64,000 bases of DNA from Gemmatimonadaceae bacterium (GTDB lineage Bacteria > Gemmatimonadota > Gemmatimonadetes > Gemmatimonadales > Gemmatimonadaceae), in NCBI GenBank assembly GCA_030647905.1, contig JAUSJA010000026.1, positions 496,001 through 560,000 of the forward strand. The letters run 5' to 3'. Of this stretch, positions 31,593 to 41,876 are shown one piece after another. The translations under genes and the position numbers were made by a program. The number at the start of each line of letters is the position of its first letter. Within the stretch, counting starts at the first letter, position 1. The notes under the pieces are model-generated. The model did no database searches. It saw only the letters and a list, made by a program, of their open reading frames with translations, and had not been told where the DNA came from.

Positions 31593-32854
31593 GTGAAGCG
31601 GTGATGCAGGCGGCGCCGCCTTGCGAGCCCGGGTGGCTGCGCGACTTTCGGCGTTCCGCGATGGCCCAGTTCGAGTCGAAGGGATTCCCGACGATGAAGG
31701 ACGAGGACTGGCATTTCACCAGCGTCGCTCCGATTGCGGAGAGAACGTTCGGCGTCGCGCACCCGGGAGCCCCGGTTTCCGCGGACGTCCTGAAGCGGTT
31801 TGCGCATGGGCAAGACTGGCACACGTTCGTCTTCGTGAACGGCTGGCTGGAAAGCAGCGCGGACAGCCTGCCTTCGGGAGTGACCGTCGGCGGTCTCGCC
31901 GACGCAATCGAGAACAGCGCCGAGCTCGTCGAGCGTCATCTTGGTAAGCTTGCGACAGCGGAATCGGGTGCGTTCACCGCGCTCAACGCAGCGCGGGCGA
32001 CCGATGGCGCGGTGATCCGCATTGCCGCCGACGCGGTCGTGGACAAGCCGATCCACCTGCTGTTCATCTCCGATTCCGGCGCCGAGGGCGCGGCGGTGCA
32101 CACCCGCAATCTCGTTTTTGCGGAGCGACATTCGCAGTGCACGCTCATCGAGAGCTACGTGAGCGTCGGCGGGGACAGCTACTTCACCAACGCGGTGACC
32201 GAGGTCTACGTCGCCGACGGGGCGCGGCTCGGCCACTACAAGCTGCAGACCGAGAGCCGCAACGCGTTCCACGTCGGGACGGTGCAGGTGCATCAGTCAC
32301 GCGACAGCCGCTACGAGTCGTTCTCGTTCGCGACCGGCGCGAAGTTGTCGCGCACAAACGTGTACACCACTCTTGCCGGAGACGCGGCAGAGGCGGTGCT
32401 CAACGGGCTGTACATGGTGGACGGCTCGCAGCACGTGGATCACCAGACGCGCATCGAGCACGTCGCGCCGAACTGCCCGAGCCACGAGCTCTACAAGGGC
32501 ATTCTCGACGGCAACTCGCACGGTGTGTTCAACGGGAAGGTGTACGTACATCCCGAGGCGCAGAAAACCGACGGAAAGCAGACCAACAACAACCTGCTGC
32601 TGTCGGATGCAGCGCGGATTGATACCAAGCCGCAGCTCGAGATATTCGCCGATGACGTGAAGTGCACGCACGGCGCTACGGTGGGGCGCCTGGATGACAC
32701 GGCGCTGTTCTACATGCGGAGCCGCGGGATCGAGCCGGCGCAGGCGAAACGGCTGCTTACCTACGCGTTCGCTGCTGATGTTCTGGAGAAGATCGAGCTG
32801 GAGCCGCTCAGGGAATCACTCGAGGCGCAGGTCCTCGAGCGATTCACTGGCTGA
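31589..32854 (+). CDS. sufD: Fe-S cluster assembly protein SufD
   Basis: A 421-aa SufBD-core protein, third part of the SufBC2D scaffold. Typical segments are KDEDWHFTSVAPI near the N-terminus, VDHQTRIEHVAPNCPSHELY, GVFNGKVYVHPEAQKTDGKQ and LFYMRSRGIEPAQAKRLLTY. The GTG start overlaps sufC. The gene is complete. A diverged copy of its last 45 or so codons lies at 41730-41876, with two blocks of perfect identity (31 and 25 nt), suggesting that DNA was inserted at this gene's 3' end. Confidence 0.96.
   Translation: MSEAVMQAAPPCEPGWLRDFRRSAMAQFESKGFPTMKDEDWHFTSVAPIAERTFGVAHPGAPVSADVLKRFAHGQDWHTFVFVNGWLESSADSLPSGVTVGGLADAIENSAELVERHLGKLATAESGAFTALNAARATDGAVIRIAADAVVDKPIHLLFISDSGAEGAAVHTRNLVFAERHSQCTLIESYVSVGGDSYFTNAVTEVYVADGARLGHYKLQTESRNAFHVGTVQVHQSRDSRYESFSFATGAKLSRTNVYTTLAGDAAEAVLNGLYMVDGSQHVDHQTRIEHVAPNCPSHELYKGILDGNSHGVFNGKVYVHPEAQKTDGKQTNNNLLLSDAARIDTKPQLEIFADDVKCTHGATVGRLDDTALFYMRSRGIEPAQAKRLLTYAFAADVLEKIELEPLRESLEAQVLERFTG
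32766..32796. repeat. Left copy of a 31-bp direct repeat inside the sufD 3' end
   Basis: This 31-bp block is identical to 41788-41818. A second identical block is 32822-32846 (25 bp), repeated at 41844-41868. Both pairs are colinear in homologous coding sequence, so the repeat is a partial sufD duplication rather than a simple short repeat. Confidence 0.9.
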
Positions 32855-32880
32855 ACTGCAGAACTGCTGAACTGCAGAAC
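32852..32880. repeat. Short tandem repeat after sufD
   Basis: TGAACTGCAGAAC occurs twice, at 32852-32864 and 32868-32880, separated by TGC. The first copy contains the sufD stop codon. It sits between sufD and the large inverted repeat. Confidence 0.8.
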
Positions 32881-32891
32881 TACGTAAGTTA

Positions 32892-33010
32892 GAACTACCC
32901 GGCGACCGGCTGATGGCTCAAGACTGCGCGGTGGGCTTTGGGCTTGGCTGCGAGGTTGGCCCAAAGCCCACTGCGCCTCACCAAGCCCACCGCCGGTCGC
33001 CGGGTAGTTC
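32892..33010. repeat. 119-bp inverted-repeat element downstream of sufD
   Basis: The outer arms 32892-32910 and 32992-33010 are perfect 19-bp inverted complements (beginning GAACTACCCGGCG). Inside them GTGGGCTTTGGGC and GCCCAAAGCCCAC form a second inverted pair, and the intervening sequence is imperfectly complementary. The whole unit can fold into one long hairpin. It lies between convergent genes, so it may be a bidirectional terminator, a REP/MITE-like element or an island-end structure. Confidence 0.85.
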
Positions 33011-33022
33011 CATCGTTGTTCT

Positions 33023-34651
33023 TCAGGTGCCGCCCGCAAGCGTAACACCAGCCCAAGCAGTGCCTGCGGATCGATCGCCCGTCGGCCGGAATCCCGAACC
33101 ATTTCCTCTGGGCGTGAGCTGCTCGTATCGTCCCGCGATCCAGAAAGCTGCGGCGCTGGAGCTCTGCCATCTGATCGCGCCCGAAAATGCCTGCGACATC
33201 GAGCCCGACGTCTCGATCGCCAACTCCGGAGCGAAGAACCTCTTGTAGATATCTCCGCGGGAGAGCGGCGAAGGAACCGAGCCGTTCACGGAGTAACCCG
33301 CGATTGCGTAGCCGCCAATCACGAGCATCCGCGGTGACAACAGTCGGCCGAGCTCGATCAATGCGGACGGCGTCACTCCATCGACCGTCGTGCTGACCTT
33401 AGCGATCGCATCGGTTCGCACTCTGTGTTCGGTCTCAACGCCCAGACCAAATGCTCCCGTCCACCTGCTTGCGCCGGGAGGAATGCGGATCTCTCCGTGC
33501 GCCCGTGCCGATCTCTCCTCCGCATCGAAGCCTTTGCGCGGCGGAAGTACCTGCTCGGCGTGCCCTGTTAACGACGTCAGAACGGCGTCAGCGGTTACCA
33601 GAGCGCGGCCATGTATCACGGGAAGTTGCAGCGCGATGCCACCGCTTCCGCTCGTCGTTGCCCAGAGATCTGTCGCGGGATTGTCCTGGTTCTGGCTCGT
33701 CAGTCGCTGGCGGAAATGTCCTCCGCCTCCGTACGCAACCCATCGGAACGCGCCACTCCGTCCTCCCAGGCTGACCTGACCTGACCGCGACTCATCCAGC
33801 ATTCTTCGCGAATAGAACAGATCGGTCTCTCTCGGCAGAATTTCCCGGTAGCCTTCCAGTGCGTAGAGCACCCCTTGCTGCGCATACTCGAAGAGGCTGA
33901 TCGACTCCTTTCCTCCATTCCAGTTTCCCACAAGTCCTGCCTGTAATCGATCATCATTGAAGGAGCGAACGACCCCAACCCCGACGCCTGACTGCACGGT
34001 CCGATTGCGTCGCGCAAACGGCGAAGAGATTGTTGCAGTGTTGCGTGTATCGTAACCGAGCGAAAGCCCGAGCCCCCAGTTTCCCAGTCGCCATCCGCCC
34101 GCGCCTTCGAGTCGGGCACGGCTCTGGCGAACGGCCGACGTTGAAGAATCGGTGACGACGAATGGGCTCGACCCGTACGGATCGTTCACGTCGCTTCGGG
34201 TGCCGGGATTCTTGATGTTGCGGTTGAAGATCGTCCGGCCGATCAATGCGCCTCTCTTCTCGACCGGCTGCCATCCCATGCCGGAGATCTGCGTGAGCCG
34301 CGTCGCAGCCGGATCGAGCGGACGCCGATACGTGCCATCCTGCGTCGAGCGCGCCGCAGCGATGTCGCCTCGCTTGTCGCTCACGTCCCACGGGAGTGCG
34401 GCGGGATTGGCGGCACTCCAGAATAGTCCGACCTTGGGCGCAGGCATGAGCAGCGACGGCAATGCAACAGACGCGCTTGGTAACTTCCTCGGCAGATCTC
34501 CCTGCGGTGTCAGCGGGCTCCACGTTTCGAGCCACTGAGGAAGATCACGTCCTGATGCGACGCTGAGTGATTGCGCATCGGCAACTGAGACCGGCAACGC
34601 CGCTGTTACGATCGAGCCGAGGACGATCAAACCATGAGCTCTCAGCGCCAT
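33023..34651 (-). CDS. Outer-membrane beta-barrel protein, DUF6850-like
   Basis: A 542-aa exported protein with leader VLGSIVTAALPVSVADA. Most of the sequence is alternating strands with aromatic girdles (GGWRLGNWGLGLSLGYDT, RWVAYGGGGHFRQRL, AAAFWIAGRYEQLTP) and a glycine-rich end. It resembles Bacteroidota barrels annotated DUF6850 that sit beside TonB receptors and DUF4876 lipoproteins, and both partners occur here. That link is from memory of gene neighbourhoods, not a search. The start overlaps the end of the TonB receptor gene by 10 nt, so the two are co-translated. The partner substrate is unknown. Confidence 0.7.
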   Translation of the reverse strand: MALRAHGLIVLGSIVTAALPVSVADAQSLSVASGRDLPQWLETWSPLTPQGDLPRKLPSASVALPSLLMPAPKVGLFWSAANPAALPWDVSDKRGDIAAARSTQDGTYRRPLDPAATRLTQISGMGWQPVEKRGALIGRTIFNRNIKNPGTRSDVNDPYGSSPFVVTDSSTSAVRQSRARLEGAGGWRLGNWGLGLSLGYDTRNTATISSPFARRNRTVQSGVGVGVVRSFNDDRLQAGLVGNWNGGKESISLFEYAQQGVLYALEGYREILPRETDLFYSRRMLDESRSGQVSLGGRSGAFRWVAYGGGGHFRQRLTSQNQDNPATDLWATTSGSGGIALQLPVIHGRALVTADAVLTSLTGHAEQVLPPRKGFDAEERSARAHGEIRIPPGASRWTGAFGLGVETEHRVRTDAIAKVSTTVDGVTPSALIELGRLLSPRMLVIGGYAIAGYSVNGSVPSPLSRGDIYKRFFAPELAIETSGSMSQAFSGAIRWQSSSAAAFWIAGRYEQLTPRGNGSGFRPTGDRSAGTAWAGVTLAGGT

Positions 34652-37524
34652 GCGAAAAGCGCCTCCAACGGCATCGTGACCTCGAGCCCGAATCGTGTTG
34701 ACTGATAGAAGTTCGGCGCTCTTCCGCCGCCTCCGAATCTGCCGATCTTGTCGAACGCATTGAAGGCGTAGAACGACAGCCGACCATCGAGGGGAAGCGT
34801 CTTCGCCGCCTGAAAACTGAACAGCCAGTCGCTCGCGCCATTCTGTCCCGCAGCGATTACGTTGCGACGTGGAATACGGATCGTGAAAAATTCAGGGCGG
34901 TTCTTTTCTGTCTCGGGGACAGGCACGAGCGAGCCACCGCGTGTCACGTAACCGACGAACGAAAGGGTGTCCGTGCGGCCGATGTTCTGTTTCCTGTCGC
35001 GGAGCGTGTGTTGAATCGTGCCGGTCAAGGCGAGGCCAACCGCGGGCTGGTGATGTATGACTCGCGTGGCCAGCAGGAGGCGTTGACCCGTACGAGCGAT
35101 CGGATCGTAGTAGGGCGAACGTGGCTGATTCTGCGCGATCTGGAATTCGTCGAAGTTGCCCGCGAACTCGAGCCCATCCTTATCGAGACGACTTTTCACG
35201 AGCGCGCTCTGGAATTCGACTCGCGTCCGGATTGGCGTTATCTCCGGAAGGCCTGCCGTCAACTCGAACCCGCTGCTGGTCTGGTCCAGGTTGTTGGCGC
35301 GGCGGTCTATGAGTACGGGCACCGAATCCACCGAGCTCGCGGGCTCGACAATGACGGGAGGCTTTCCCGAGCCGGGAGCGGTGTTGGTCAGAGTAAAGTG
35401 CTCGCGCAGAAGAAACGTCGGCTCGGCCCTGATTCCAACTCCTCCAGTGAGCTTCTCCCGGAAGGCGACGAAGCTGAGATTTCCGCCGCGGCCGAATCGC
35501 ATCTCCAGTCCGGCTTCGGCCTTGTCGGCAATGGAGTAATGCAGGTCAGGATTGCCGGGGTCGAATGTGGACGTGGTCAGAACAGCCAGCCGCTCCGCCG
35601 GATTGTTGGCGAAGAAGTTCACGTTGATGACGTCGTAGTACTGAAGTGCAGGATACAGATCATCGAGCGACGGGAGTTTCGCCACACGCCCGGCACCAGC
35701 GCGCAACCGCAACCACGGGCGCGGCGCAAGCTCCGCATTGAGGCGTGGCTGGATTACACCGTCACGCGAGCCCGGTGCCCAGGTGCCTCCCTGGTGCAGC
35801 ACGTCGGCACGAACTCCGCCTTGGATGTTGAGGAGCATTCCACTGGCGAAGGAGCGCGAAAGCCGGTCGTCGAGATAGAAGGCGCTAGTCGCGAGAGCCG
35901 GAATCTCAGCGTATGTGCGCGGGCGCGCGAACCCGCGCGCGCCATTGAACTGATCCTGGGGTGGAAACTCGATGTCAAACTGATATCCCGCGCCCGAGTT
36001 CACTTCACGGCGCAGTTCGCCGCCGAGGCGAATGTCGTGTGAGAAACCGAGCATGTCACGGGGACTGCTCAGCTCAGCGCGTGTATAGAACATTTGCGGC
36101 TTGCCGTCCACGTTCACGCGCGCGTTGTAGATGCCCGCCACGTAACGTCCAATCTCGCGGCCCGGTGTGGTTCTATTGGTCACCGGTGTCGTGGACCGCA
36201 GCTTGTTCTGCCGCGAGAATGATTCCTGGCGTCCGGCATCGAATGCCCCCGTGAGCTCAAGGCGAGAGCGCTGGCCTATACGGAGCCGTGCGCGCTCAGA
36301 GATGCGGAGCCCGGAATCTCGAGATCTTGACTCCATACCCGGGAGTGCTGCCTGCTCCGGCCGCTGATCGAGCAACTGGAAGAAATCGGCGCGCGTATCG
36401 AGAACGAGCCGGGCATCGAGCGGGCTGCCGTCGAGCACTGACTCACCGGTTCTCTGCCCGAAAATGGCACGATGGGCGAGTTGGCTGGAAAAGTGCGTTG
36501 CTTGGTCGTCGCGGGTGCCGCTGGGCACCCGTGTACGTGCCAGATCTGCTGTCACGCTGCCGGTCTGGTGTGGGCCCAGCCGTGTTCCCCCGACGATGCT
36601 TGCTTCGGTGGTTTGCGCATCCGCGCGGAGCGATGCTTCGGGAGGAATTACGCCTGCCCTTGTGTCGATGATGATCGCGCCCTGGGTGAGATCACCGAAT
36701 CTCGCGGACGGAATTCCGCGGATAACCTCGACACGCTCGATGGTCGTCGCCGGAATTCTGCGAAGGTCGATGCCACCGCCCGCCGAGCTGCTGAAGCCGA
36801 GCTCCGCACGTGAGCCGAGTGACTGCAGGTTGGCGTTGTTGGACAGGGGAACGCCGTCGAGGATGATCAGGGTTCCAAACGCGGCGAGCTGCTGGGCAGA
36901 GCGATCGGAGGAGCCGGGGTCGCCGCCGGAAATGGGCACAGCCCGAAGCGATATCTGCTGGACGTTGTCGAGGCCGGGCGCCTGGAGAGGTACGCCGGGA
37001 AGAAGCTCGAGAATTCCGGAGAGGCTTGCGGCTGTCTGGTTCTTGATCGCTTCCTGCTCTATGACGCTTGCTGTGCCGAGCTCTCCGCGCGCGCGGCTGG
37101 CCGGATCGGCCGTCACGGTGATGCCGGTAAGCTCCAGCGCGTGCTTCGCCATCGCGATGTTCCGCCGGAGCTCACCAGTCGCGGGAACGACGATGTTAAT
37201 GCGCGTAGGTGCATAGCCGATGCGTTGCGCACGGAGAACCTGAGGTCCGGCGGGAGCGCGCCCTATGCGAAAAGAGCCCGTGCTGTCTGTCGTAGCGCCC
37301 ACACGGGTTCCTTCGAGTGTGACGCTTACCCCGACGAGTGGACGGCTGGTGCTCGCTTCGGTGACCTGGCCGGTGATGTGTGCTTCACCGGCCGCTCCTC
37401 CCTGCGCGAAGGCTCTCGAGGAAATCGAGGTCATCGAGCCAATGAGCGTGGCGCCGAGAACCACATACTCAAGCCGTCGTGCGATCGTGAACTTGTCAGT
37501 CTTCATATGCTGCATCTTCTCCAT
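34642..37524 (-). CDS. TonB-dependent receptor of the island locus
   Basis: A 960-aa outer-membrane receptor. A leader (LGATLIGSMTSISSRAFA) precedes a carboxypeptidase-regulatory domain (about 45-130; ITGQVTEASTSRPLVGVSV, GSFRIGRAPAGPQVLRAQ). The plug follows (about 140-270; SLSGILELLPGVPLQAPG, IERVEVIRGIPSARFGDL), then a barrel ending GLEVTMPLEALFAWR. I chose the ATG at 37524 because GAGAG lies 6 nt upstream. ATGs at 37515 and 37506 also fit, and the frame is open to 37590. It overlaps the barrel gene downstream and follows a thioredoxin-like gene. Confidence 0.85.
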   Translation of the reverse strand: MEKMQHMKTDKFTIARRLEYVVLGATLIGSMTSISSRAFAQGGAAGEAHITGQVTEASTSRPLVGVSVTLEGTRVGATTDSTGSFRIGRAPAGPQVLRAQRIGYAPTRINIVVPATGELRRNIAMAKHALELTGITVTADPASRARGELGTASVIEQEAIKNQTAASLSGILELLPGVPLQAPGLDNVQQISLRAVPISGGDPGSSDRSAQQLAAFGTLIILDGVPLSNNANLQSLGSRAELGFSSSAGGGIDLRRIPATTIERVEVIRGIPSARFGDLTQGAIIIDTRAGVIPPEASLRADAQTTEASIVGGTRLGPHQTGSVTADLARTRVPSGTRDDQATHFSSQLAHRAIFGQRTGESVLDGSPLDARLVLDTRADFFQLLDQRPEQAALPGMESRSRDSGLRISERARLRIGQRSRLELTGAFDAGRQESFSRQNKLRSTTPVTNRTTPGREIGRYVAGIYNARVNVDGKPQMFYTRAELSSPRDMLGFSHDIRLGGELRREVNSGAGYQFDIEFPPQDQFNGARGFARPRTYAEIPALATSAFYLDDRLSRSFASGMLLNIQGGVRADVLHQGGTWAPGSRDGVIQPRLNAELAPRPWLRLRAGAGRVAKLPSLDDLYPALQYYDVINVNFFANNPAERLAVLTTSTFDPGNPDLHYSIADKAEAGLEMRFGRGGNLSFVAFREKLTGGVGIRAEPTFLLREHFTLTNTAPGSGKPPVIVEPASSVDSVPVLIDRRANNLDQTSSGFELTAGLPEITPIRTRVEFQSALVKSRLDKDGLEFAGNFDEFQIAQNQPRSPYYDPIARTGQRLLLATRVIHHQPAVGLALTGTIQHTLRDRKQNIGRTDTLSFVGYVTRGGSLVPVPETEKNRPEFFTIRIPRRNVIAAGQNGASDWLFSFQAAKTLPLDGRLSFYAFNAFDKIGRFGGGGRAPNFYQSTRFGLEVTMPLEALFAWR

Positions 37525-37564
37525 CACGGACTCTCGCGAATATGCACGCAGGTAGTGCGGTATG

Positions 37565-38032
37565 TCAGCCCGTTGATCGAGCTGGAACACGTGCCGTTGG
37601 CGACATGGCCTGCTTTTCGGTCGCCGCCGGAGGAGCAGGCGGCCGCAGCGCTTCGTTGACGACTGAATCTTCTACGGCCACTAACTCGATGACTCCGCTT
37701 CTCGAGTAGAGAATTCGTCCTTCGGAATTCAGAATCAACGTTTGCGGTACGACTGCTGCGCGCGAAAGGCGTACCAGTTTGCGTTCGGGAAAGACGAGCA
37801 ACGGAAACGGGAACTTTCCCCTTTTCTGAAATCGCTTTGCTTCCGGAAGAGAGTCCGGAGTGAGACCGAGCACCGTTATTCTGCTCCGAGGCTGTGAGTT
37901 GAGTCGCGCTGCGATTCTGCGCCAGGAAGGAATGGTCCTGCGGCAGTACGGGCAGGCCAGTCGGTGAATCTGATTCTTCGCATTGTCTTTCCTGTGGTGT
38001 GTGCCGGCAGCCGAGGGGAAATCGGACTGCAT
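37565..38032 (-). CDS. Thioredoxin-like protein with CPYC motif, possibly N-terminally truncated
   Basis: A 155-aa frame containing a redox motif, RLACPYCRRTIPSW, near residue 27. A thioredoxin/TlpA-like core follows (ITVLGLTPDSL, FPLLVFPERKLVRL, and the cis-proline loop AVVPQTLILNSEGRILYSRSG). In TlpA-type proteins about 60-100 residues with a leader precede the CxxC; here only 26 atypical residues do, and no signal peptide is visible. The 5' end may be lost or frameshifted. It lies 40 nt upstream of the TonB receptor gene, divergent from the cysteine-rich peptide. A role in disulfide chemistry of that peptide is a tempting inference. Confidence 0.6.
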   Translation of the reverse strand: MQSDFPSAAGTHHRKDNAKNQIHRLACPYCRRTIPSWRRIAARLNSQPRSRITVLGLTPDSLPEAKRFQKRGKFPFPLLVFPERKLVRLSRAAVVPQTLILNSEGRILYSRSGVIELVAVEDSVVNEALRPPAPPAATEKQAMSPTARVPARSTG

Positions 38033-38070
38033 TGGTGAATGCGTTCACAGGAGATGACGGAAGATGGTTA

Positions 38071-38095
38071 CCACGTGGGGATGTAACCCACATCC
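38071..38095. promoter_or_regulatory. Palindromes in the island's divergent promoter region
   Basis: CCACGTGG (38071-38078) is a perfect palindrome. It is followed at once by GGATGT-aaccc-ACATCC (38079-38095). Both lie between the thioredoxin-like start and the peptide start and could bind a shared regulator. Confidence 0.35.
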
Positions 38096-38173
38096 GTCAA
38101 CAAGGCAGAGGGAGAGACGTGCTCTTTCCTCATGAGCGGCTCGACCGCTCGTCCATTCTTCATGGAGAGAAAA

Positions 38174-38407
38174 ATGCGTAGGACAAAGCTGGTAGCGAGG
38201 GCGGCTCTGCTGTTTTCGCTGGTTGGGAGCCTGACGTTCGGCGCGTCAGAAGTTTTCGCTGCCGATCCCGCGAGAACATGTCCGAACGACGGGTACAACG
38301 CGTTCGGTGAGTGCGTGAGTTTAGAGAATTGCCAGTTCCTCTGCGAAGGTGTCGGGGGCATTCAGGGCAATTGTATCTCCGCGAACTGCTGCTTCTGCGA
38401 ACACTGA
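38174..38407 (+). CDS. Secreted cysteine-rich peptide with defensin-like (CS-alpha-beta) cysteine spacing
   Basis: A 77-aa precursor. A basic start and hydrophobic core (ALLFSLVGSLTFGASEVFA) give a signal peptide likely cut after VFA at residue 29. The 48-residue mature part has eight cysteines at 36, 47, 53, 57, 67, 72, 73 and 75: C-x10-C-x5-C-x3-C-x9-C-x4-CC-x-C. The C-x3-C helix motif, the GNC segment resembling a gamma-core GXC, and the C-terminal C-x-C are the hallmarks of the CS-alpha-beta fold. The first four intervals equal those of plant defensins; the last plant cysteine is absent and an extra one precedes C-x-C. GGAG lies 6 nt before the ATG. Antimicrobial, signalling or receptor-ligand roles are all possible. 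NVEALA-type exported peptides of Bacteroidota are an alternative relation. Confidence 0.75.
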   Translation: MRRTKLVARAALLFSLVGSLTFGASEVFAADPARTCPNDGYNAFGECVSLENCQFLCEGVGGIQGNCISANCCFCEH

Positions 38408-38414
38408 GGTCAGA

Positions 38415-38444
38415 AGCCGGCTCGGTCATATGACCGAGCCGGCT
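38415..38444. terminator. Perfect 30-bp palindrome after the cysteine-rich peptide gene
   Basis: AGCCGGCTCGGTCAT and its exact complement form an uninterrupted palindrome 8 nt after the peptide stop. As RNA it folds into a strong hairpin. No T-run follows, so partial termination or 3'-end protection of an abundant peptide mRNA is likely, with some read-through to the lipoprotein gene. Confidence 0.7.
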
Positions 38445-38505
38445 CGCGGTCTTGTGCGGGGACGTTCCGCGTTGGTATCATCCGAATAACCTCAAGGAGC
38501 TCGAC

Positions 38506-39786
38506 ATGTCAGTCTGGGGTAAATTTCGCGGTGCTATGGCCTCGCATCATATTGCTGGGCTCGCCGCTTTCCTGGCACTGGGCTGCTCAGGCGGGGAAGT
38601 GAAGATCGTCGATCCGCCCCCCACGGGCAGCTCAGGTCTCAAGATCACCATTGCGCCTGAGCCTGCAGATCAGTCGTTCGCTCAACTCCTCGGCTGGACC
38701 AGTGGAATTCCTGGTGCTGAAATCAGAGTCACTCCGCTCGATTCTACCGTCGGCCGTTCTCAGACCTTCACTGCCGACGCCTCTGGATCAGCTTCAGTTT
38801 CGGGCCTGGCACCGGAGCAATACGTTGTCGAAGCGAGGAGACTCCTGTCCGCATCTGAACTTGCAAAGTTCGGCACGGGGCGTGACCCGACAGGGTTCGC
38901 AGGGAGGGGAACGATTCACGTTTCTCCGACTGTGTCATCGGCCATTGTCACCATTCCTGCCAGCCGCCGCCGATCACTCCTGATTAACGAAGTGTCCTGG
39001 CAAGCTGTGTTCCAAGCCCTGCCGGATGGAGCGACCTACTACGATAACGGCTTCATCGAGATGTACAACAACTCGGACACGATTATCCACCTGGATGGGA
39101 TGACCATCGGACAGCCAATAAATATCTTCCGTAACTACCCGGACTTTCCATGTTCGATGTTCGAGAGGTTTCGCAACGATGCGACGGGAATCTGGGCTCA
39201 GGTCATTTTTGTGTTTCCCGGAGCGGGGCAGGATTATCCACTGGCTCCCGGGAAGCTCGTGGTTGTAGCGCAGGACGCAATTGACCATTCCGGTATTTTC
39301 CCAGGGTTGCCGGATCTGAGTGGCGCCGCTTTCGAGTTCACTGGAAGACCCGGCGATGTAGATAACCCGGCTTCCGCGAATTTGATTAGCCGTGGGGGTT
39401 ACACTGCTCCTCACGGGATGCTGAATATGTCGCTCGGTGGAACCATTTTTGTTGCAGCTCCTGTCAACTTTGCGGACCTGGAGAGTGGGCGTGATCCGCG
39501 CAATGACAATGTTCTCAGTAAATTTCCGGCGGCCACGATACTTGACACCTTCTCCACCGTGTTCCCAAATGACGACTATCCTGAAAACCCATATTGCTCG
39601 GAGCTTGTGAACCGCGCCTTCGACCGCGAAACCGGGAAGTTCTTCTCAGAGTCACGGGGTAGCTTCCAAATCTCCCAATCACGCAGATCGATAGGCGTCA
39701 CGGCCGACAGCCGGCCAATCGTTCAGAGCACGCGTTCGAGTGCGATGGATTTTGTGAACGGCCCTTTCAGTCCAGGAAGGATGTAG
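38506..39786 (+). CDS. Lipoprotein resembling DUF4876 proteins
   Basis: A 426-aa lipoprotein with lipobox AFLALGC. An N-terminal Ig-like domain (about 40-150; GIPGAEIRVTPLDSTVG, SGSASVSGLAPEQYVVEARR) precedes a lamin-tail/DUF4876-like domain (about 160-420; LLINEVSWQAV, NGFIEMYNNSDTIIHLDGM, DYPLAPGKLVVVAQDAIDHS). AAGGAG lies 6 nt before the ATG. Related lipoproteins sit beside TonB receptors and DUF6850 barrels in Bacteroidota. It follows the cysteine-rich peptide and is divergent from the receptor. GC content is visibly lower than in the flanking housekeeping genes, consistent with transfer. Confidence 0.72.
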   Translation: MSVWGKFRGAMASHHIAGLAAFLALGCSGGEVKIVDPPPTGSSGLKITIAPEPADQSFAQLLGWTSGIPGAEIRVTPLDSTVGRSQTFTADASGSASVSGLAPEQYVVEARRLLSASELAKFGTGRDPTGFAGRGTIHVSPTVSSAIVTIPASRRRSLLINEVSWQAVFQALPDGATYYDNGFIEMYNNSDTIIHLDGMTIGQPINIFRNYPDFPCSMFERFRNDATGIWAQVIFVFPGAGQDYPLAPGKLVVVAQDAIDHSGIFPGLPDLSGAAFEFTGRPGDVDNPASANLISRGGYTAPHGMLNMSLGGTIFVAAPVNFADLESGRDPRNDNVLSKFPAATILDTFSTVFPNDDYPENPYCSELVNRAFDRETGKFFSESRGSFQISQSRRSIGVTADSRPIVQSTRSSAMDFVNGPFSPGRM

Positions 39787-39817
39787 CCGCCCGAGTTCGG
39801 CTGAGGCGGACGCGCTC

Positions 39818-40498
39818 TTAAGCCGTCCGTCGAAACCTGGCGATTACCGTCCCGAGGACGAGCGACAAGTCCTTTGGAATGTCGAACGAGCGAGAACGCG
39901 GGTTAAGCGAGGTAAGCTTCAATCGCGAGTTCGTGATCTCCTTCACGCGTTTTACGACGTAGCCCTCATCCGGGCGGCGCGCAACGATAATGTCGTTTAT
40001 CGTTACCCTCGCTCCAAGCTTCACGACGATGACGTCGCCGTTTTCCAGAAAAGGAGACATGCTTGCTCCCGAAACGTGCAACGCGACGTGCCCCGCAGCA
40101 GAATTCCCAAGCGGAAACTCGATCCATCTTTCTGCTTCCTCGTCGAGCAATTCCCGCCCTTCGCCTGCAGCGACTCGGCTGTCAATCAGCGGTACGCATT
40201 CGAGCGACGCGGCAATTGGAAACACTTCGCGTACGCGACCCACGACGGGAGCGGGGATGTCGTAGAGATGCATGACAGGCATCTCTTTCATTATACGCTC
40301 GGCGGCAAGACGCGCCTCGAGCTGCTCAGCAAAAGTCTGAGCATGTTTCTGAGTATCCCGCTTTTCTTCCACGGTCATCGCGCGCACAGTATCCCTGATG
40401 AGCCAGTCAACGAATCCCTCATGATCCAATCCCGTCGCATCAGAGCGTTGCGCAACCAGTTTCTCTATCGAGGGCTGTCTTGATTCAGAATCAGTCAT
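39818..40498 (-). CDS. LexA/CI-like S24 peptidase without a recognisable DNA-binding domain
   Basis: A 226-aa protein whose C-terminal half (about 105-226) is an S24 self-cleaving protease. The serine is in HVSGASMSPFLENGD (Ser146), the lysine in GYVVKRVKEI (Lys183), and the likely cleavage site is Ala111-Gly112 in DSRVAAGEG. The first 100 residues are helical but do not match a LexA or CI helix-turn-helix. Its start overlaps the sigma-like gene upstream by 4 nt (ATGA), so DNA binding may come from that partner. A phage-type or SOS-type switch is inferred. Confidence 0.8.
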   Translation of the reverse strand: MTDSESRQPSIEKLVAQRSDATGLDHEGFVDWLIRDTVRAMTVEEKRDTQKHAQTFAEQLEARLAAERIMKEMPVMHLYDIPAPVVGRVREVFPIAASLECVPLIDSRVAAGEGRELLDEEAERWIEFPLGNSAAGHVALHVSGASMSPFLENGDVIVVKLGARVTINDIIVARRPDEGYVVKRVKEITNSRLKLTSLNPRSRSFDIPKDLSLVLGTVIARFRRTA

Positions 40499-40992
40499 TC
40501 TCCCTCCTCTGACTGTCCCAGCTCGGGGACATACTTCGCCAGTTCAGCTCGCTCTTTCTCATCGAGTCTCCTGGCATAGAGAGCTGCCGCGCGCTTCAAC
40601 CTGTTGCGAAGACGGTGAATTCGAACTTTCGTCGTGGGTGCGGAAATGCCGAGCCAGTTTGCGATGTCGTGAGCAGGAACCCGATAGGATATCCAGGTGA
40701 GAACCGCACGATCGGGGTCGCCTAACGGAGCAAGGATCTCGTCGAGCATGGCCGTTAGAACCGCCGGTGCCGGTTCTCGTGCGTAAGAATCCGGTCCAGC
40801 GGCAGACCGCAAGGCATGCTCCGAGCAGCAACTGATGATTGCTTCCTCCGCGGAGCCCGCGAGCCTGCTCATTGCTTCACCCGACATCCAATCGCGAGAC
40901 GAAAGGGTGGCTGTGGAGTCGGGCGCGGGTCTGGTCAAGAGTCGTCTGCATGACTGGCCACGCGCTGCGAACTCTCCTGCGATTCCAGCCAT
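40495..40992 (-). CDS. Sigma-70 region 4-like helix-turn-helix protein
   Basis: A frame of up to 165 aa. Residues about 85-140 (ILAPLGDPDRAVLTWISYRV, ANWLGISAPTTKVRIHRLRN) match sigma region 4 of ECF-type factors. The segment before it does not look like region 2, so it may be a stand-alone regulator rather than a full sigma factor. The 40992 start overlaps the ERF-like gene by 58 nt. ATGs at 40887 and 40872 avoid that, and the latter has GGGTGA upstream. The stop overlaps the S24 gene (ATGA). Confidence 0.65.
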   Translation of the reverse strand: MAGIAGEFAARGQSCRRLLTRPAPDSTATLSSRDWMSGEAMSRLAGSAEEAIISCCSEHALRSAAGPDSYAREPAPAVLTAMLDEILAPLGDPDRAVLTWISYRVPAHDIANWLGISAPTTKVRIHRLRNRLKRAAALYARRLDEKERAELAKYVPELGQSEEGE

Positions 40993-41561
40993 TGTCTCAA
41001 CTTGCTCGCCCAGCTTTCGAGTCGAGCCGGTTTGGGGAGACGATGATGGTTGAGACGCCGCCTGATCGGTTCGCTCATTTCCGTTGCGAACCCAAGCTGC
41101 TCGGCCTCGGAGAGGAGTCTCGACACTTCGGCGGCGAGCCGCCGCGCATCGGCGAGCTTATAGGAACTTGCGATACCAGACCTCTCCCGAATTCTTTTCG
41201 CGCGGGCAACCTTGGCCATTTCTTCCGAGCTCGGACGAAAAGTTGATGCCGTGAATCCAAGATTCGCGAGCGCACGCCCGATCGCGGATGTCTCCGTATT
41301 CTCGAGACAAGCGTAAGTGTTGATCTGTCCGTCGTCCTCGCGTTCCGAGGCCCACCCAGTCGAGGAAGGAGCCGCATCCTCCGCCGTTCGGAAGACCTGG
41401 GACTTGAAGGTGATTTCTCCGTCTTCGCGCGACATCAGCTCAGTGAGAATTCGACCTGTCGGATGACGCTCGTAGAAGAGCGTTATACGGTCGGCGACCA
41501 GCGCATATCCGCCACTCCGGATCGAAAGCACCTTTGGCACGTTCACCTTCCAATGCGTCAC
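40935..41561 (-). CDS. ERF-like single-strand annealing protein (phage-type)
   Basis: A 208-aa protein. The segment CLENTETSAIGRALANLGF (about 86-104) is the most typical stretch of ERF-superfamily single-strand annealing proteins, with VFRTAEDAAPSSTGWAS before it in the position of their acidic loop. The C-terminal part is helical and basic. Such proteins pair homologous DNA during phage recombination. It leads the three-gene minus-strand module with the sigma-like and S24 genes, inside the proposed island. Low-stringency similarity only; another recombination-associated function is possible. Confidence 0.55.
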   Translation of the reverse strand: MTHWKVNVPKVLSIRSGGYALVADRITLFYERHPTGRILTELMSREDGEITFKSQVFRTAEDAAPSSTGWASEREDDGQINTYACLENTETSAIGRALANLGFTASTFRPSSEEMAKVARAKRIRERSGIASSYKLADARRLAAEVSRLLSEAEQLGFATEMSEPIRRRLNHHRLPKPARLESWASKLRQWLESQESSQRVASHADDS

Positions 41562-41729
41562 AAGGAGGACCGAATAAACGCCGAAGCGACAGAATGTGAC
41601 TTAGCGACCCTCTATTGGTAAGACGTAAACGGGTTACACGGTCAGGCGATGACCAAGCGGGTTGTCGTGACTCGTATCGCGGAGAGACGGTCCGTGCGAT
41701 CGTGAACGACCACAGGATTACAGTGCTGG

Positions 41730-41876
41730 TTCCACACGCGCAGCCGCGGCGTGGGATCCGCGCAGGCGAAGCGACTGCTCACCTACACGTTCGCTGCTGA
41801 TGTTCTGGAGAAGATCGAACTCGCGCCGCTGCGCGAAGCGCTGGAGGCGCAGGTCCTCGAGCGATTCATCGCATGA
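41730..41876 (+). pseudogene. Remnant of a sufD 3' end
   Basis: Reading from 41739 in frame to TGA at 41874-41876 gives RSRGVGSAQAKRLLTY and further residues that match the C-terminus of SufD (32716-32854) almost residue for residue, ending in LERFIA rather than LERFTG. Upstream of about 41730 the similarity fades and an in-frame stop appears. There is no start codon. Most differences from the intact copy are at third codon positions, so this is a related sufD end, not a recent exact duplicate. It probably marks the far edge of the inserted segment. Confidence 0.85.
41788..41818. repeat. Right copy of the 31-bp sufD direct repeat
   Basis: Identical to 32766-32796. The paired 25-bp block is 41844-41868. 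The distance between the copies is 9,022 bp. Confidence 0.9.

What the first reader, a model, noticed from the sequence alone, without database searches (positions are those of the whole stretch)
33023..39786. Divergent locus joining the cysteine-rich peptide to a thioredoxin-like protein, TonB receptor, barrel protein and lipoprotein
Minus strand: CPYC protein, TonB receptor, overlapping barrel gene. Plus strand: exported peptide, palindrome, lipoprotein. They share a 141-nt intergenic region with two palindromes. TonB receptor, DUF6850-like barrel and DUF4876-like lipoprotein recall a module I associate with Bacteroidota. Adding a defensin-like peptide suggests a peptide-linked outer-membrane system: export, immunity, or uptake of a peptide-bound ligand such as a metal. 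I know of no description of this set.
Basis: inference. Interest (0 to 1): 0.8.

Follow-up and report, generated by a model that had tools for sequence, protein, structure and literature searches.

The report
Defensin-fold peptide with TonB receptor module
This uncultured bacterium carries, on a 9-kb acquired island, a small exported peptide predicted to fold like plant and insect defensins, together with a thioredoxin-like protein and an outer-membrane uptake complex related to metal-scavenging systems; the same set recurs across its phylum, so the peptide looks like a fixed partner of the receptor, more likely for nutrient (metal) capture than for killing.

Summary
The window is from Gemmatimonadota. 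The 77-aa exported 8-Cys peptide (38174-38404 +) has a predicted cis-defensin (CS-alpha-beta) fold: cystine framework, all 60 listed PDB profile hits, the AlphaFold model and all 50 listed Foldseek matches agree. Relatives with a conserved signal sequence lie beside the same genes (ResA/TlpA-like thioredoxin, TonB receptor, DUF6850 barrel, DUF4876 lipoprotein) at about a dozen other Gemmatimonadota loci; in that receptor clade the peptide-less loci are scattered. Bacteroidota-type relatives of the module lack peptide and thioredoxin; those modules sit beside zinc-chaperone ZigA genes far above chance (6 of 31 genomes, 0.07 expected), and published data show them induced by iron depletion, so metal uptake is their likely role. 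Receptor-linked peptides are acidic (mean -4.4), orphan relatives in tandem arrays neutral. Best reading: the peptide is the secreted, disulphide-folded partner of a TonB-dependent, probably metal, capture complex (0.42); a bacteriocin reading stays open. Here the locus is a 9-kb island inserted between sufD and an FHA gene. I found no earlier description of the set or of defensins in this phylum.

The parts
38174..38407 (+). exported 77-aa peptide, 8 Cys in the mature part, predicted CS-alpha-beta (cis-defensin) fold, net charge -5
   Evidence: framework and charge, PDB profile hits, AlphaFold, Foldseek, conserved relatives
38408..38508 (+). intergenic hairpin (perfect 15+15 palindrome 38415-38444) between peptide and lipoprotein genes
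   Evidence: (-44.8 kcal/mol, z -4.0)
38509..39786 (+). DUF4876-type lipoprotein (lipobox LGC, Cys 26)
38033..38173 (.). divergent 141-nt intergenic region with a 17-nt dyad 38055-38099 and a 6-nt dyad 38134-38150
   Evidence: not conserved in other loci
37565..38032 (-). thioredoxin-like protein (AhpC-TSA 8e-7; relatives score as ResA), CPYC, without the N-terminal membrane anchor of its relatives
34642..37524 (-). TonB-dependent receptor with CarboxypepD_reg_2 domain
33023..34651 (-). DUF6850 outer-membrane barrel
32847..41868 (.). about 9-kb inserted island that carries the locus; its far end (41729-41868) is a second, 84% copy of the last 140 nt of the sufD region (32707-32846)
39818..41561 (-). 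three further island genes: S24/CI-like repressor (39818-40498), sigma-like (40495-40992), phrog_11717-like (40935-41561)

Best explanation
A conserved Gemmatimonadota outer-membrane capture module with a defensin-fold peptide as its soluble partner. Shown or strongly predicted: the peptide has a signal sequence and a CS-alpha-beta fold, and it is inherited together with a thioredoxin-like protein, a TonB receptor, a DUF6850 barrel and a DUF4876 lipoprotein. Inferred: the peptide is exported, possibly in excess of its neighbours (a hairpin follows its gene); its four disulphides form with help of the thioredoxin-like protein; it binds a ligand, probably a metal ion or metal complex, through its acidic surface and conserved N-terminal loop (C-P/Q-N-D-G-x-N..G-x-C); and it hands the ligand to, or is part of, the DUF4876-TonB complex, which imports it with TonB energy. 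In this genome the module arrived on a 9-kb island.
For: Peptide, thioredoxin and lipoprotein travel with the receptor across the clade and are absent or present together. At L044 thioredoxin-peptide-lipoprotein is repeated as a unit behind one receptor-barrel pair. At L177 peptide and thioredoxin stand beside another TonB receptor. The related module is next to ZigA zinc GTPases in 6 of 31 genomes, 0.07 expected, and is induced by iron depletion in Porphyromonas and Bacteroides (PMC10434189). Receptor-linked peptides are acidic, mean -4.4, against about 0 for orphans. [quoted passage not shown]
Against: No metal gene lies near the peptide-bearing loci and this genome has no ZigA, so the ligand is inferred across about 30% receptor identity. 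The window's thioredoxin-like protein lacks the anchor or signal needed to act in the periplasm. Some peptide-thioredoxin pairs have no receptor beside them, and orphan arrays exist. Peptide-less loci of the same clade persist. Charge comparison is not corrected for relatedness. No interaction was tested.
Confidence: 0.42

Rival explanations
1. The peptide is a defensin-like bacteriocin; the lipoprotein or receptor gives immunity to the producer or is the door by which the peptide enters related target cells.
For: Fold shared with actifensin-type bacteriocins and eukaryotic defensins (PMC6989792); gamma-core GxC present; relatives in tandem arrays with conserved signal and diverged mature part; locus on a mobile island.
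Against: Receptor-linked peptides are acidic; the related receptor module exists widely without any peptide, so its ancestral role is not immunity; no ABC exporter or protease as in actifensin operons (PMC6989792).
Confidence: 0.25
2. The peptide is a structural or assembly subunit of the outer-membrane complex (for example a plug or clamp on the DUF4876 lipoprotein), not a free ligand carrier.
For: Co-duplication of peptide and lipoprotein at L044 and nearness of the two genes in most loci.
Against: Closely related loci in the same clade work without it (L045, L050, L051); a hairpin behind the gene suggests unequal amounts.
Confidence: 0.2
3. Peptide and thioredoxin are a separate small secreted system that merely lies next to the receptor genes.
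For: The peptide family occurs without the receptor module (L164, L166, L179 with thioredoxin only; orphan arrays); the two strands are divergent and no shared operator was found.
Against: Recurrence of the set at many loci with varied gene order and strand, and joint absence with the thioredoxin elsewhere.
Confidence: 0.13

Closest known systems
Bacterial cis-defensins (actifensin, actinomycesin, xanthusin; classes I-V of PMC11561630)
   Same: Cystine framework C..CxxxC..C..CxC, GxC gamma-core, predicted CS-alpha-beta fold; several copies per genome in some lineages
   Different: Other phylum; four disulphides possible (8 Cys with CCxC); acidic; tied to a thioredoxin-like gene and a TonB-DUF4876-DUF6850 module; surveys list only Proteobacteria, Acidobacteria and Actinobacteria
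TonB receptor-DUF4876-DUF6850 operons of Bacteroidota (PG1019-22; BT1933-39 with structure 4q1z; BT3625-33)
   Same: Same three outer-membrane gene families; lipoprotein model matches 4q1z
   Different: Receptor only about 30% identical; no peptide and no thioredoxin; ZigA neighbours not seen in the peptide-bearing clade
NVEALA-type peptides of Bacteroidota (recalled from memory, not tested by a fold comparison)
   Same: Small exported Cys-rich peptide beside a TlpA-like thioredoxin
   Different: No Pfam or NCBIfam match between the families

Membership tests
cis-defensin (CS-alpha-beta) peptides | cystine framework C..CxxxC..C..CxC in a secreted peptide | tested here: met
   window peptide and 47-48 of 51 relatives; for the window sequence alone the framework has p about 0.04 on shuffling, so the family evidence carries the claim
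cis-defensin (CS-alpha-beta) peptides | strand-helix-strand-strand fold | tested here: met
   prediction only: AlphaFold mature part pLDDT about 90; all listed Foldseek matches are CS-alpha-beta
cis-defensin (CS-alpha-beta) peptides | disulphide connectivity of the fold | not testable with these tools
   needs mass mapping or NMR
defensin-like bacteriocins (actifensin type) | antimicrobial activity | not testable with these tools
defensin-like bacteriocins (actifensin type) | ABC transporter and protease genes beside the structural gene | tested here: not met
   none among the genes of the island; actifensin operon as in PMC6989792
TonB receptor-DUF4876-DUF6850 module | TonB receptor, DUF4876 lipoprotein and DUF6850 barrel together | tested here: met
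   DUF4876 met by structure and profile, not by the Pfam cut-off
ResA/TlpA-like thiol-disulphide oxidoreductases | CxxC thioredoxin fold with N-terminal membrane anchor or signal | tested here: inconclusive
   CPYC and family match met; anchor missing in the window and apparently in L163, present in L040, L042, L043, L044 and L046

The most novel reading that the evidence does not exclude
A genetically encoded, defensin-fold peptide metallophore: a ribosomal peptide secreted to bind a metal or metal complex and delivered back through its own cognate surface lipoprotein and TonB receptor, that is, the defensin fold used for nutrient capture in bacteria.
Probability: 0.22. Interest if true: 0.9.

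Novelty: new variant of a known kind. Interest (0 to 1): 0.72.

Why it matters
Bacterial cis-defensins have been reported from actinobacteria, myxobacteria and a few other Proteobacteria and Acidobacteria, and are mostly read as killers. Here is a large family in another phylum, one branch of which is tied to an outer-membrane uptake complex. That gives a concrete setting in which to test a non-killing role for bacterial defensins, and a handle on the ligand of the widespread but uncharacterised DUF4876-DUF6850 receptors of Bacteroides and Porphyromonas, which their ZigA linkage points to as metal importers.

Tried and rejected
Lipoprotein alone as query in genome contigs found nothing, being too divergent; the receptor profile worked. 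A shared operator in upstream regions: none above shuffled controls. Sigma-70 promoter and intrinsic-terminator consensus: none. Defence-system library: no match. NCBIfam for peptide, barrel and lipoprotein: no match. Peptide in Bacteroidota-type genomes that have the module: none in 38, though that search had no positive control within the set. A second copy of the peptide in this genome: none. One peptide hit (L181) was dropped as a chance match in a wrong frame.

Full report
WHAT IS IN THE WINDOW. The genome is a 3.1-Mb assembly of Gemmatimonadota kind: the closest loci on named contigs are Gemmatimonadota. Minus strand: a DUF6850 barrel (33023-34651), a TonB receptor (34642-37524) and a thioredoxin-like CPYC protein (37565-38032). 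Plus strand: an exported peptide (38174-38407) and a lipoprotein (38509-39786). Barrel and receptor genes overlap by 10 nt. The 141-nt divergent region holds a 17-nt dyad and a 6-nt dyad, and a perfect 30-nt palindrome follows the peptide gene. Pfam confirms DUF6850 (2.1e-15) and the receptor and gives DUF4876 only below its cut-off; the AlphaFold model of the lipoprotein (pLDDT 87) matches the DUF4876 structure 4q1z with E 2.2e-21.

THE PEPTIDE IS A PREDICTED CIS-DEFENSIN. Single-sequence family searches say almost nothing (gamma-thionin E 0.19). Family evidence does. Seven peptides from related loci gave a profile that found strong relatives in a phylum sample of 395 genomes, up to 14 matches in one genome. 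Of 51 distinct peptides, 47-48 carry the framework CxxxC..C..CxC after the signal sequence; shuffled mature sequences give 1.2-1.6. A 12-row profile against PDB sequences lists 60 chains, all of them CS-alpha-beta proteins: charybdotoxin 0.0026, plant defensins from 0.0032, plectasin, xanthusin-1. The AlphaFold model of the window peptide has the strand-helix-strand-strand order with pLDDT about 90 in the mature part, and all 50 listed Foldseek matches are plant or insect defensins or scorpion toxins, best probability 0.97. The E-values are modest one by one, as expected for 45 residues; their unanimity is the argument.

THE SET IS CONSERVED. Receptors 45-55% identical to the window's form one clade (100/100) apart from the Bacteroidota-type receptors. 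The peptide lies with the receptor module at the window, L040, L042, L043, L044 (two cassettes), L085 (two loci), L088, L093, L095, L097, L099 and L163; L048 and L169 are broken contigs with peptide and lipoprotein genes. The thioredoxin-like gene is in the same gene string at all of these, except L099, where the 975 bases upstream hold none, and L048, which is cut. Loci without the peptide (L045, L047, L050, L051) also lack the thioredoxin. On the tree the peptide-less loci are scattered, so losses are likelier than repeated gains. At L044 thioredoxin-peptide-lipoprotein is repeated as a unit behind one receptor-barrel pair, which ties the peptide to the lipoprotein. At L177 peptide and thioredoxin stand beside a different TonB receptor. 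Hairpins follow the peptide gene at the window (z -4.0), L163 (z -6.7), L043 and L048; that would fit a peptide made in other amounts than its neighbours (inference).

WHAT THE MODULE PROBABLY DOES. The related module (receptor, DUF4876, DUF6850) in Bacteroidota, Chlorobi, Balneolota and other Gemmatimonadota has no such peptide; 38 such genomes gave no peptide hit. It is often next to a ZigA-type zinc GTPase (L103, L104, L106, L107, L108, L115, L121, L131, L142, L036; motif scan; family models for four of them). Counted on whole genomes, ZigA has 17 copies in 31 genomes, so about 0.07 neighbourhoods are expected by chance and 6 were seen (p about 1e-10). Fur-family regulators lie beside two loci. 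Published transcriptomes show DUF4876-TonB operons of Porphyromonas gingivalis (PG1019-22) and Bacteroides thetaiotaomicron (BT3625-33) strongly induced by iron depletion (PMC10434189). So the related module is most likely a metal importer. For the peptide-bearing clade this is an inference from kinship: no metal gene was seen near it and this genome has no ZigA.

WHAT THE PEPTIDE PROBABLY DOES. Receptor-linked peptides (16) average net charge -4.4 and 15 have 8 Cys; 28 orphan peptides average about 0 and mostly have 6 Cys (not corrected for relatedness). Several receptor-linked peptides share a loop C-P/Q-N-D-G-x-N..G-x-C that the orphans lack. An acidic peptide kept with an uptake complex fits a ligand-capturing or complex-forming partner better than a membrane-active killer; [quoted passage not shown]). 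I therefore put capture of a probably metal-containing ligand first (0.42), bacteriocin second (0.25), structural subunit third (0.2) and mere adjacency fourth (0.13). The thioredoxin-like protein is the likely folding helper in relatives, where it is membrane-anchored; in the window, and apparently in L163, the anchor is missing, so this step is uncertain here.

MOBILITY. In 12 congeners sufD is followed directly by the FHA gene. In the window 9 kb lie between them, ending in a second, 84% identical copy of the last 140 nt of the sufD region. The inserted genes have GC3 0.59-0.71 against 0.80-0.83 for the flanks, and three further genes on it have phage-type matches (repressor/S24, sigma-like, phrog_11717). 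The lipoprotein was not found in 18 congeners. The locus is best read as a horizontal acquisition.

PRIOR KNOWLEDGE. Surveys report bacterial cis-defensins from Proteobacteria (mostly myxobacteria), Acidobacteria and Actinobacteria (PMC11561630), or from actinobacteria and myxobacteria only (PMC8819291). Neither text contains 'Gemmatimon'. A search for defensin with the phylum's names listed no paper on the subject among its best. DUF4876 and DUF6850 appear in three papers in all. Absence from this open-access library is not proof of absence.

VERDICT. Real, conserved, and unusual in combination. Anatomy and predicted fold are well supported (about 0.9); the mechanism is inference.

Noticed in passing
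window 32847-41868: About 9-kb insertion between sufD and an FHA gene that are neighbours in 12 congeners, bracketed by a duplicated sufD end (140 nt, 84%); carries S24/CI-like repressor, sigma-like and phrog_11717-like genes but no recognised integrase.
   Followed up: partly
L168, L173, L174 (genomes of genus g72, family f6): Tandem arrays of up to nine small exported 6-Cys peptides with the defensin framework, no thioredoxin or receptor beside them; up to 14 family matches in one genome. A large untested peptide family.
   Followed up: partly
L103, L104, L106, L107, L108, L115, L121, L131, L142, L036: TonB-DUF4876-DUF6850 loci next to ZigA zinc-chaperone GTPase genes, sometimes with a Fur-family regulator: points to a zinc or other metal importer of unknown mechanism.
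   Followed up: yes
L042 9945-10616 (-) and L093 15960-16265 (-): A second kind of small exported Cys-rich peptide beyond the barrel gene, outside the defensin framework.
   Followed up: no
L104 4182-4523 and 9517-9870; L110 9595-9990: Small His-rich, apparently exported proteins just upstream of the Bacteroidota-type receptor genes; no family match for the one scanned.
   Followed up: no
window 32892-32918 / 32984-33010: 27-nt inverted repeat (89%) just after sufD, at the left border of the island.
   Followed up: no
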